A stretch of 64,000 nt of DNA from Geobacillus vulcani PSS1 (GTDB lineage: Bacteria; Bacillota; Bacilli; Bacillales; Anoxybacillaceae): positions 1,589,501 to 1,653,500 of the forward strand of contig NZ_JPOI01000001.1 in assembly GCF_000733845.1 (NCBI RefSeq), in the 5' to 3' direction. Shown here in pieces: positions 9,537-12,209 of the stretch (position 1 is its first letter; the number at the start of each line of letters is the position of its first letter). Both the position numbers and the translations under genes were made by a program. The notes below the pieces were generated by a model. It was not told the origin of the DNA and did not search any database. It saw nothing but the letters and a program-made list of their open reading frames with translations.

Positions 9537-9939
9537 AAAGAACGCCGGATGAACGCTTTGCCTGTCTGCGTCGGATGAGGCGGCCTTATGGCTCTTTTGA
9601 TCTTCTTCGAACCGATCCGTCCCCTGTTTTCGTCATGGTGCGAAAGCGGGGATGAGTCGGTTTTTTTGTTTCAGCCGCTGAAAGACGTCTTTCAGAAATC
9701 CGTTGACTCAAGCGAAAAGGATGAGTCTTTTGGTTTAGCAGCCCCCGCTGCCGGCCGGGTTTCACTCTGGCTGTTTTGTCGCAGGCAGAAAGCCGCAAAG
9801 AGAGAAAAACGGAAAATAGGCTGCCGGATCAGGCCGTATGTCGCCCAATCATTTTCCCAATACCGAATCAACCAATGTTAAGATAAAATTTTGATTGAAA
9901 GGAATAATCAAACTATTAAAAAAGAAAGGGGTGAAGGGA
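9537..9939. other. 403-bp npr regulatory region
   Basis: No gene. After the terminator (9610-9667) come an 18-bp perfect palindrome (CTGAAAGACGTCTTTCAG, 9678-9695) and an inverted pair GACTCA/TGAGTC (9705-9710 and 9722-9727). Three CCAAT-type direct repeats follow (9844, 9856, 9872), then a TAAAAT hexamer near 9886 with no recognisable -35 box. The missing -35 fits activator-dependent transcription; operator identity is inference. Confidence 0.55.
9610..9667 (+). terminator. Strong terminator ending nprA-peptide transcript
   Basis: A long imperfect stem (AACCGAT...TCCCC..TTTTCG with CGAAA..GGGGA...TCGGTT) is followed by seven T. It separates the regulator/peptide pair from npr. Confidence 0.85.
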
Positions 9940-11580
9940 ATGAACAAACGGGCGATGCTTGGCGCGATCGGGTTGGCGTTTGGATTGATGGCTTGGCCGC
10001 TCGGCGCTTTGGCGAAGGAAAAATCCGTGGTATGGGACGAACAGTGGAAGACGCCGTCGTTCGTTTCAGGCCCGCTGTTGAAAGGCCAAGAGGCTCCAGA
10101 AGAATTGGTTTACCGTTATCTCGATCAAGAGAAGAATACATTCCGCCTTGGCGGACAAGCCCGGGAACGGCTGGCGCTGATCGGCAACCAAACGGACGAA
10201 CTCGGCCATACGGTCATGCGGTTTGAACAGCGTCATCACGGCATCCCAGTGTATGGCGCCGTGCTTGTTGCCCACGTCCATGATGGTGAATTGTCCTCTT
10301 TGTCGGGCGCGCTCATTCCGGATTTGGATCAACGAGCATTGAAGACAAAAGCCGCCCTTTCTGTTCAACAAGCGGAAATGATCGCGGAACAAGATGTGGC
10401 CGATACGGTGACGAAAGAACGGCCGGCGGGCGAGAAGGAAAAACCAACGCGGCTTGTCATCTATCCGGATGGGGAAACCCCGCGTCTCGCCTATGAGGTC
10501 AATGTCCGCTTTTTAACCCCTGTCCCAGGCAACTGGATCTACATGATCGATGCCATAGATGGAAAAGTGTTGAACAAATGGAATCAAATGGACGAGGCGA
10601 AGCCGGGCGGCGGGCAACCGGTCGCCGGCACGTCGACGGTCGGCGTGGGCCGCGGTGTGTTGGGAGATCAGAAATATATCAATACGACGTATTCCTCGTA
10701 TTACGGCTACTACTATTTGCAAGACAATACGCGCGGCAGCGGCATTTTTACGTATGACGGACGAAACCGCACCGTGCTGCCCGGCAGCTTGTGGGCCGAT
10801 AGCGACAACCAATTTTTCGCCAGCTATGATGCGGCGGCTGTGGATGCTCATTATTACGCCAGCGTCGTGTACGACTACTACAAAAATGTGCACGGCCGTC
10901 TGAGCTATGACGGCAGCAACGCCGCCATCCGTTCGACCGTCCATTACGGACGCGGCTACAACAACGCGTTTTGGAACGGCTCGCAAATGGTGTACGGCGA
11001 TGGAGACGGACAGACGTTTTTGCCGTTTTCCGGCGGCATTGACGTCGTCGGGCATGAGCTGACCCATGCGGTGACGGATTATACGGCCGGGCTTGTTTAC
11101 CAAAATGAATCCGGCGCCATCAACGAGGCGATGTCTGACATTTTCGGCACGCTCGTGGAGTTTTATTCCAACCGCAGCCCGGACTGGGAGATCGGCGAAG
11201 ACATTTACACGCCTGGGATCACCGGCGATGCACTCCGCTCGATGTCCGATCCGGCGAAATACGGCGATCCGGATCATTATTCCAAGCGGTACACCGGCAC
11301 GCAAGATAACGGCGGCGTCCATACGAACAGCGGCATCATCAATAAGGCGGCGTATTTGCTCAGCCAAGGCGGCACCCACTACGGCGTGAGCGTCACCGGC
11401 ATCGGCCGCGACAAAATGGGGAAAATTTTCTATCGGGCGCTCGTCTACTATTTGACGCCGACGTCAACCTTCAGCCAGCTGCGCGCCGCCTGCACTCAGG
11501 CTGCCGCTGACTTGTACGGCTCGACAAGCCAAGAAGTGAACTCGGTGAAACAGGCGTTCAATGCCGTAGGAGTCTATTAA
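9940..11580 (+). CDS. nprM: Secreted thermolysin-like neutral protease (M4)
   Basis: Extracellular zinc endopeptidase made as a 546-aa prepro-protein: signal peptide (residues 1-25, ending GALA), FTP/PepSY propeptide to about residue 230, then the mature M4 domain starting near [16 protein letters not shown]. Zinc ligands and catalytic residues are present: HELTH at 372-376, the third ligand in GAINEAMSD at E396, and the transition-state His in GGVHTNS near 461. As I recall, the sequence is almost that of B. stearothermophilus NprM/NprS/NprT; the exact symbol depends on strain. The start is the ATG at 9940 with AAAGGGGTGA upstream; the frame is open from 9895 but lacks an RBS there. It is probably switched on by NprA with its peptide. 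Confidence 0.96.
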
Positions 11581-11905
11581 ACTCGCTGCAGCTGGAACAG
11601 GAGATAACGCAGCCTCTATATAGATGCAACGAAGAAGTTTAACATCTCCTTGACGGAAAAGCGGTTTGTCCATTTTCGACTGTCGAAGGCAAGCCTGTGG
11701 CTTGCCTTCGTCACGCCAAGGCGTGACGGAAGACCGAACAACCGCCTGCTTCACAGACCCATATATGGGTCTGGAAGCGGCGTGGTTCGGTCGCCCGACA
11801 GTCGATCCAATCTCGGTAAAAGCGGCAAATGGGACAGCTTCTTCAAATGGCATCTATAGAAAACCTCCCTTCAGTGCGGCAGGAGTCGATTAGACTCGCT
11901 GCAGC
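11557..11905 (+). repeat. Direct repeat of the npr 3' end flanking a structured insert
   Basis: The 36 bp at 11557-11592 (last codons of npr, its stop and the start of the 3' UTR) recur at 11870-11905 with 31 of 36 bases matching. The downstream copy reads FSAAGVD-stop where npr reads FNAVGVY-stop. The copies are 313 bp apart and bracket the cloverleaf-like element. Confidence 0.75.
11676..11805. other. Cloverleaf-like multi-stem palindromic element
   Basis: A perfect 10-bp closing stem, TCGACTGTCG (11676-11685) with CGACAGTCGA (11796-11805), encloses three successive stem-loops. Arm 1 is AAGGCAAGCC/GGCTTGCCTT (11686-11708). Arm 2 is CGTCACGCC/GGCGTGACG (11709-11728). Arm 3 is GACCGAAC/GTTCGGTC (11732-11792) and has a 20-bp perfect palindrome at its tip (11754-11773). 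Arms abut with almost no spacer. It may be a structured RNA or a small palindromic mobile element; identity unknown. Confidence 0.8.
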
Positions 11906-11938
11906 CACCGCCGATGAAAGCTGCCGGCTGCATGGAAT

Positions 11939-11966
11939 GCGCCCTGGCCTTTGGGGCGCGTTTTTT
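11939..11966 (+). terminator. Terminator after the npr region
   Basis: GCGCCCT pairs with GGGGCGC, followed by six T. It is the first convincing terminator downstream of npr, so the npr transcript probably includes the cloverleaf element. Confidence 0.75.
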
Positions 11967-12029
11967 GTTGCGTCGGGCAGGACTTTCCCTCTCCTTGTGG
12001 AAAAGGAAAAAGAAAACGGGGGGAGCGCC

Positions 12030-12209
12030 ATGTACAAAGTCAAAGTGTTTGACAAGGAACATGAAAAAGATTTGGAAGCAGCGGTCAACGACTTTTTAGC
12101 GCGCCTGAAAGACGGGCAATTGATCGATGTCAAATACAGCGTCGCGGCGATGGAATCGGAAGGCGAGCAAATTTACTGTTTCTCTGCCATGGTCATTTAC
12201 CGGGCGTGA
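12030..12209 (+). CDS. cse60: Sporulation protein Cse60
   Basis: A 59-aa acidic cytoplasmic protein of the Cse60 (YteV) family, a small product of the mother-cell sigma-E regulon in B. subtilis with unknown biochemical role. Family features are the opening MYKVKVFDKEHEKDLEAAVN and the closing EQIYCFSAMVIYR. The ATG at 12030 is preceded by GGGGGGAG. It stands alone after the npr terminator; I did not identify a clear sigma-E promoter. Nothing unusual in length. Confidence 0.85.
   Translation: MYKVKVFDKEHEKDLEAAVNDFLARLKDGQLIDVKYSVAAMESEGEQIYCFSAMVIYRA

What the first reader, a model, noticed from the sequence alone, without database searches (positions are those of the whole stretch)
11676..11805. 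Cloverleaf-like 130-bp element downstream of the neutral protease gene
A perfect 10-bp closing stem encloses three back-to-back stem-loops: 10 bp, 9 bp, and an imperfect long arm tipped by a 20-bp perfect palindrome (11754-11773). Nearly every base is paired, far beyond what a terminator needs, and the segment encodes no plausible protein. The real terminator comes later, at 11939, so the element is probably transcribed as the npr 3' UTR. It could be a structured regulatory RNA, an mRNA stabiliser for a highly expressed exoenzyme, or a palindromic miniature mobile element with cruciform potential. I know of no named family it fits.
Basis: seen in the sequence. Interest (0 to 1): 0.8.

Follow-up and report, generated by a model that had tools for sequence, protein, structure and literature searches.

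The report
Cloverleaf-cored miniature transposon of Bacillales
The 130-base cloverleaf behind the protease gene is the core of a short jumping DNA element found in many copies in Geobacillus and related bacteria; the same folded core also sits inside a second kind of short jumping element with different ends, which suggests the fold itself matters to these elements.

Summary
The fold is real (RNA MFE -92.2, z -11.4) but is no npr-specific RNA. It is the centre of a 240-bp miniature transposon (11619-11858): TATAGATGC ends, TA target duplication at CTAG (4 of 7 sites clean), matches in 14 of 14 genus genomes. Of 12 genomes with an npr-end match only the window's own has it there. Its left end resembles IS630-family ends. 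The core reaches further: a covariance model finds it in 36 of 41 family genomes and, among 299 drawn from the order, in 4 outside the family. In three of those four it sits in elements with other ends and 8-bp duplications. Helices are replaced with pairing kept (25 of 37 pairs changed on both sides). Strand signature is absent or weak, loops occur in both orientations, and same-site copies drift as fast in the core as in the spacer. So the structure is kept in lineages that jump, probably as DNA, not in single copies. A role in mobility is inferred, untested. New variant of a known kind (MITE).

The parts
9895..11580 (+). neutral protease (npr, thermolysin-like) reading frame upstream of the insertion; the listed start is mechanical
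11617..11618 (.). TA of the target (left copy of the 2-bp target duplication); preceded by C at 11616, as in CTAG targets
   Evidence: sequence and sites without the element for other copies
11619..11643 (+). left terminal inverted repeat TATAGATGCAACGAAGAAGTTTAAC
   Evidence: shared, with variation, by the 72 copies that reach both ends; similar to IS630-type ends
11644..11675 (+). left spacer (contains CCTTGACGGAAAAG)
   Evidence: copy alignment
11676..11805 (.). cloverleaf core: closing stem, hairpin 1, hairpin 2, long arm with palindromic tip 11754-11773
11806..11833 (+). right spacer
   Evidence: copy alignment
11834..11858 (-). right terminal inverted repeat (ends ...GGCATCTATA)
   Evidence: in this copy the right-hand TA of the duplication is missing before G at 11859, read as contraction of TATA to TA (inference)

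Best explanation
[quoted passage not shown] SHOWN: dispersed copies, matched ends, TA target duplication at CTAG, absence at npr in the 11 other genomes compared, and a core whose four-helix cloverleaf is kept by compensatory change while its sequence turns over. SHOWN: a homologous core is carried by a second MITE type with different ends and an 8-bp target duplication. INFERRED: it is moved in trans by an IS630-family transposase that recognises the TATAxATGCA... ends. INFERRED: the core is kept because elements with an intact fold are the ones that keep jumping, and it acts as DNA: as a cruciform in supercoiled DNA or a folded single strand it would draw the two terminal repeats to one four-way junction and so help a very short element form the transposase complex, whatever transposase is used. 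I put about 0.97 on the MITE reading, 0.7 on a structure kept at the DNA or lineage level rather than for a host RNA, and 0.3 on the end-synapsis mechanism.
For: Copies: 23 own-genome loci aligned, 13 of them reaching both ends; matches in 14 of 14 genus genomes and 7 of 11 other genomes of the family; four loci of G048 have identical cores with different flanks. Ends and target: 7 insertion sites were compared with sites lacking the element (12 comparisons); 4 show C-TA-G going to C-TA-[TATAGATGC...GCATCTATA]-TA-G, the other 3 have CA where TA is expected. Mobiliser: IS630-type elements of 1187-1198 bp with ends such as TATACATGCAACATGAAGAGTTAAC; the right end of the Anoxybacillus-type element matches an IS630 end at 23 of 25 bases, and the window's left end at 17 of 25 with a gapped score of 14 against a shuffled maximum of 9. 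Structure: 93.5% of cells paired against 80.3% shuffled and 33-42% slid; covariation score 0.376 against 0.148 (40 cores chosen by me to span subfamilies). Second MITE type: 15 elements delimited, mean 1.0 mismatch between 8-bp flanks against 4.5 for non-self flanks; its core L245 is 62-71% identical to three IS630-type cores, local score 66 (L203) against a shuffled maximum of 27. DNA or lineage level: fold energies even between strands (+ lower 75, - lower 88 of 163); both loop orientations (TGT 51 / ACA 45); decay of pairs outnumbers their renewal (434 events leave a Watson-Crick pair for GU, AC or another mismatch, against 21 double changes and 43 returns from GU or AC); core 0.036, spacer and ends 0.040, upstream flank 0.032 differences per site, pooled over 13 same-site pairs chosen by me.
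Against: A second IS630-like repeat of about 116 bp in the same genus has no such fold (z -0.9) yet gave 33 rows in a capped list, so short elements with related ends can spread without a cloverleaf. Six loci share the same loss of hairpin 2 (five listed, plus L393), which may mean such elements can still move, unless the loss recurs. The window's right end does not match the IS630 ends above chance (score 7, shuffled maximum 9). No transposase was found for the second type: ISL3 was tested and its loci lack those ends. The own genome gave only two IS630 matches: a fragment with the right kind of end (L180) and another without such ends (L158). The lack of strand bias would also fit an RNA effect read from both strands. 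Changes to GU exceed changes to AC (164 to 124), a weak hint of a + strand RNA. The same-site pairs overlap in members, and some may include exchange between copies.
Confidence: 0.6

Rival explanations
1. Both-strand RNA insulator: the element is read through in either direction and the fold makes a stable or RNase III-cut hairpin domain that softens its effect on host transcripts, so hosts tolerate intact copies.
For: Fold about equally stable on both strands; inserted just behind npr. Passages of PMC10969869 and PMC3049150 report RNase III cutting of Correia transcripts and suggest effects of folded repeats on co-transcribed genes.
Against: Same-site copies show no extra constraint on the core. 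No excess between convergent genes: 16 convergent, 14 divergent, 78 tandem of 108, from a crude reading-frame guess. No promoter or terminator pattern found in 11540-12050.
Confidence: 0.2
2. Mutational self-keeping: hairpins repair themselves by template switching during replication, so pairing is kept with no function and covariation is a by-product.
For: Loops are found in both orientations and differ between copies at the same site (L188/L135, L058/L328), as hairpin template switching would give. L397 has a perfect 42-base palindrome and L396 nearly one. Renewal of pairs does occur: 21 double changes and 43 returns from GU or AC.
Against: Events that leave a Watson-Crick pair are 434 (270 if GU is not counted) against 64 that renew one. 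The number and order of the four helices is the same in cores from four bacterial families, which repair of single hairpins does not explain. Some same-site differences could be exchange between copies.
Confidence: 0.22
3. Single-strand structured RNA gene or npr 3' UTR element.
For: Very strong fold and covariation; slight excess of GU over AC.
Against: Absent at npr in the 11 other genomes compared; no Rfam match; no strand bias of energy, near-even orientation; loops in both orientations.
Confidence: 0.07
4. The cloverleaf is itself a separate mobile or exchangeable module that enters different MITEs.
For: Shared by two MITE types with different ends, both apparently in one genome, G170 (L245, and L217 by its left end). 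L028 and L050 lack the core and keep one copy of the TCGACnGTCGA repeat.
Against: The empty forms are also explained by slippage between the 11-base TCGACnGTCGA repeats. Ends of L216 and L224 were not found, so whether the core ever stands alone is open.
Confidence: 0.15

Closest known systems
RUP of Streptococcus pneumoniae (IS630-type MITE)
   Same: Short, dispersed, terminal repeats similar to an IS630 member (IS630-Spn1), target duplication, tightly folded with the terminal repeats paired (passages of PMC3049150); ends also pair here in the whole-element fold
   Different: RUP is 107 bp and AT-rich. Here a separate GC-rich four-helix core lies between the repeats and recurs in another MITE type
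Correia / NEMIS elements of Neisseria
   Same: MITE with a stable fold and insertion near genes (passages of PMC10969869)
   Different: I know of no cloverleaf core shared between MITE types (recalled); promoters reported there, none found here by a consensus scan
bcr1 of the Bacillus cereus group
   Same: Folded mobile-like repeat of Bacillales; listed as 147-167 bp in PMC2267715 (passages)
   Different: Not compared by sequence here; whether the B. cereus group carries the cloverleaf core was not tested by name, as G handles bear none
IS630-family insertion sequences of Geobacillus (such as L171, L174)
   Same: Terminal repeats and, by inference, TA duplication
   Different: Carry the transposase; no core match lies between the ends of the nine delimited (the one in L173 lies outside its IS)

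Membership tests
MITE (general) | short, too small for a transposase gene | tested here: met
   240 bp here; from 193 bp (L398) to 249 bp among copies reaching both ends; small conserved frames were not tested
MITE (general) | dispersed copies with sharp, inverted-repeat ends | tested here: met
MITE (general) | target-site duplication and empty sites | tested here: met
   4 of 7 insertion sites clean, 3 of 7 with CA for TA
IS630 / Tc1-mariner-type MITE | TA duplication, CTAG target (target preference recalled) | tested here: met
   the 4 clean sites
IS630 / Tc1-mariner-type MITE | ends similar to an IS630-family element in the same or a related genome | tested here: met
   met for the window's left end and both ends of the Anoxybacillus-type element; not met for the window's right end
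IS630 / Tc1-mariner-type MITE | moved in trans by that transposase | not testable with these tools
   needs a transposition assay
Structured ncRNA family (Rfam) | match above a curated gathering score | tested here: not met
ISL3-type MITE (for the second element type, GGCTCTTTTC ends) | ends match those of an ISL3 element in the same genomes | tested here: not met
   PF01610 matches in 5 of 6 genomes searched; the fetched loci lack the ends; G170's match is at a contig end, G231's are broken. An 8-bp duplication alone is met
REP / PATE (IS200/IS605-related) | no terminal inverted repeat, no target duplication (recalled) | tested here: not met
   inverted repeats and TA duplication present

The most novel reading that the evidence does not exclude
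The cloverleaf is a transposase-independent DNA-architecture module: a four-way folding core selected for its shape, not its sequence, that has been exchanged between MITEs of unrelated transposon superfamilies across Bacillales and helps miniature elements bring their ends together or otherwise survive.
Probability: 0.3. Interest if true: 0.82.

Novelty: new variant of a known kind. Interest (0 to 1): 0.62.

Why it matters
MITE interiors are usually taken as leftovers of a parent element. Here the interior is the most durable part: its shape outlives its sequence and even the element's ends. If the shape is needed for mobility, it would be a function inside a non-autonomous transposon that does not depend on the transposase, open to a simple swap test. 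It also warns that strong covariation in a bacterial intergenic repeat need not mean an RNA gene: strand symmetry, loop orientation and same-site drift have to be checked.

Tried and rejected
npr 3' UTR RNA: rejected, element absent at npr in the 11 other genomes compared. Rfam: nothing near gathering score (best E 0.69; none of six loci at E 0.1). ISL3 as mobiliser of the second type: recalled from the 8-bp duplication and GG ends, tested, not supported. Phages collection: no match. Plasmids: matches in three records only; two searches with cores of the second type gave none and one with its end gave weak matches; the two Priestia hits opened show no annotated transposase in 5 kb and no element by eye. 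Promoter or terminator in the element: none by consensus scan. Replichore bias: counted by hand positions assuming the origin at base 1, no clear bias; not a tested claim.

Papers: PMC2267715, PMC3049150 and PMC10969869 were read as passages only. Seven searches of the open library (listings and abstract openings seen) showed me no description of this element; subscription papers are not covered, so 'not described' is limited to that. Target preference of IS630 and the features of bcr1, REP/PATE and ISL3 beyond those passages are recalled.

Rows left out: A2 used 48 of the 49 cores selected (L029 dropped as decayed). A3's 40 cores were chosen by me to span subfamilies. In one search, 23 loci were given and 15 elements delimited; two had no left end by the pattern, the others no right-end pattern or were repeats, and at least two of the 15 (L218, L220) look wrongly delimited. 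In one search, 103 stretches matched and 80 were listed; 90 of the 103 hold a core match, the rest are taken as chance or decayed. In one search, 2 of 3 contigs hold the element; L384 is chance. The 172 cores include 9 from G170 and 2 from plasmids, and copies are not independent. Covariance-model E-values are rough (short calibration), and runs over more than 40 genomes used stricter filters. On re-checking, the count of pair-keeping events was mended to include returns from GU and AC, for which I raised the self-keeping rival from 0.20 to 0.22.

Full report
Observation. The palindrome CAGACCCATATATGGGTCTG is at 11754-11773. No Rfam family reaches its gathering score in 11300-12200.

It is a dispersed repeat. 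A search of the window's own genome (3,389,115 bases, one contig) with 11640-11830 gave 39 matches, including reverse self-matches and fragments. I aligned 23 loci; 13 own-genome copies reach both ends. The extent is wider than the finding: 11619-11858, from TATAGATGCAACG to ...GGCATCTATA.

Distribution. With the element as query, 21 of 41 genomes matched: 14 of 14 of the genus, 7 of 11 others of the family, 0 of 16 from other families. Seven copies in G011 match the window's at 336-348 bits, and four loci in G048 have identical cores with different flanks, which speaks for recent movement. A pattern scan matched 103 stretches, 90 of them with a core; named holders include Geobacillus zalihae, G. 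thermocatenulatus, G. jurassicus, G. proteiniphilus, G. icigianus, Anoxybacillus tepidamans, A. voinovskiensis and A. pushchinoensis. Plasmid pHTA426 of G. kaustophilus HTA426 and two plasmids of A. amylolyticus also carry it, as do two contigs of the viral collection.

Insertion. Sites without the element were found for 7 insertion sites, in 12 comparisons. Four sites read C-TA-G, and the occupied site reads C-TA-TATAGATGC...GCATCTATA-TA-G: a TA duplication at CTAG. At the other three the site without the element has CA instead of TA. At npr, 12 of 14 genus genomes matched the end of the gene; none of the 11 besides the window's genome has the element in the 330 bases read behind npr, nor a core match in the fetched stretch.

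Mobiliser. All 14 genus genomes hold IS630-type (PF13358) matches. Elements of 1187-1198 bp have ends TATACATGCTCATTGAAAAGTTAAC and TATACATGCAACATGAAGAGTTAAC or close variants; no core lies inside the nine delimited. The A. amylolyticus-type element is little more than such ends around the core (193 bp, L398), with 23 of 25 bases of its right end equal to one IS630 end. The window's left end scores 14 (shuffled maximum 9), its right end 7 (shuffled maximum 9), so the right end alone would not make the case. In the window's own genome two IS630 matches were found: a fragment with the right kind of end (L180) and another without such ends (L158).

The core has a wider history. A covariance model R1 from 48 cores matched 36 of 41 family genomes, 9 of 9 genera, and 14 of 299 genomes drawn from the order, 4 of them outside the family: G150, G170, G206, G231, in three families. 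G170 gave 95 matches, G231 43, G016 48 (such counts include reverse-strand matches to the same place, as one search shows). By eye, the ends in G016 are again TATA-type, and in G170, G231 and G206 they are GGCTCTTTTC...GAAAACAGCC; those of G150 and of L216 (G055) were not found. For the GGCT type 15 elements could be delimited: the 8 bases on the two sides differ by 1.0 on average against 4.5 for flanks of different elements, 9 of 15 being exact. G170 seems to carry both types (L245, and L217 by its left end). The core of L245 is 62-71% identical to three cores of the first type, and its local score with L203 is far above shuffles (66 against at most 27). ISL3, my first guess for the second type, was tested and not supported.

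Structure is kept, sequence is not. On 40 cores (39 distinct) from four families, 93.5% of cells form pairs, against 80.3% in shuffles and 33-42% with slid partners; 25 of 37 pairs change on both sides with pairing kept (1 of 500 shuffles as high); covariation score 0.376 against 0.148. The structure tested came from the same alignment, which favours it over slid versions. Helices are largely replaced in L212, L216, L218 and L224, while order and number of arms stay. The long-arm tip, GACAAATnnATTTGTC or GACCCATnnATGGGTC in most, is the most constant part by eye.

DNA or RNA? Over 163 distinct cores (9 of the 172 copies from G170) the + strand folds better in 75 and the - strand in 88. Changes from a Watson-Crick pair, by parsimony averaged over 20 resolutions, give GU 163.9, AC 123.8, other mismatches 146.1, both sides changed 21.0; 42.7 further events return GU or AC to a Watson-Crick pair. 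The GU excess is weak, and substitutions in unpaired columns are also uneven between strands (not normalised for base content). Of 112 copies, 108 had guessed neighbours on both sides: same direction 42, opposite 36, convergent 16, divergent 14; 4 lay at an edge. Loops occur in both orientations (TGT 51, ACA 45; CCAAGG 38, CCTTGG 24; 37 of 172 unread for each arm), also between copies at one site. This speaks against a dedicated one-strand RNA as the main reason for the fold; it does not exclude an effect of both strands' RNA.

Where does selection act? In 13 same-site pairs of copies, chosen by me and overlapping in members, the core differs at 0.036 per site, spacer plus ends at 0.040 and the upstream flank at 0.032, pooled: once inserted, a copy drifts. 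Yet lineages across families stay paired. So the fold is kept in the lineage that jumps. That is why I favour a role in mobility or survival of the element. The specific idea, that the cloverleaf brings the ends to one junction, explains independence from sequence and from transposase, but it is inference. Against it: an unstructured IS630-like repeat of about 116 bp also spreads in the genus (33 rows of a capped list), and a form without hairpin 2 is found at six loci.

Verdict. An IS630-type MITE, ordinary in kind, with an interior that is not ordinary: a cloverleaf module shared by two MITE types.

Noticed in passing
L104-L110 (own genome, G000:C1:1056457, 1258648, 3336242, 446915, 1718497, 2659427, 1206512): A second small element of about 120 bp (CCTGAAAATACCCG...GTGACGAAA...TTTCGTCATGGnAGTCTAT) sits after CTAT or a remnant of it; 5 of 7 copies in the own genome abut an end of the cloverleaf element. 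One site is seen with and without it (L059 and L058). Placement after a fixed tetramer recalls IS200/IS605-type derivatives (recalled).
   Followed up: partly
L044, L086, L101, L158, L293, L387: Another IS630-like repeat of 105-117 bp (TATAAGTTGCAATAAAG...CAACTTATA) recurs in the genus; one example folded has no notable structure (z -0.9).
   Followed up: partly
11557-11592 and 11870-11905: A 36-bp imperfect direct repeat (86%) brackets the element: the end of npr and a stretch behind the insertion. Far too long for a TA duplication; origin unexplained.
   Followed up: partly
G005:C1:2809100-2809564, G011:C3:362744-363197, G008:C1:1274616-1275063 (L080, L079, L092): Pairs of elements stand in tandem and share about 5 bases at the joint, as if one inserted at the end of the other.
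   Followed up: no
L399 (G048:C1:1190000-1190500): In one copy the tip of the long arm is replaced by an unrelated hairpin (GGCTGACCAAAACGC...GCGTTTTGGGTCAGCC) with the cloverleaf otherwise kept; a similar hairpin stands in L025 of the own genome.
   Followed up: no
L386 (contig of the viral collection) and L068: The same insertion, in a sequence that recurs without the element at several places in G011, is carried on a contig of the viral collection, a possible route between genomes.
   Followed up: no
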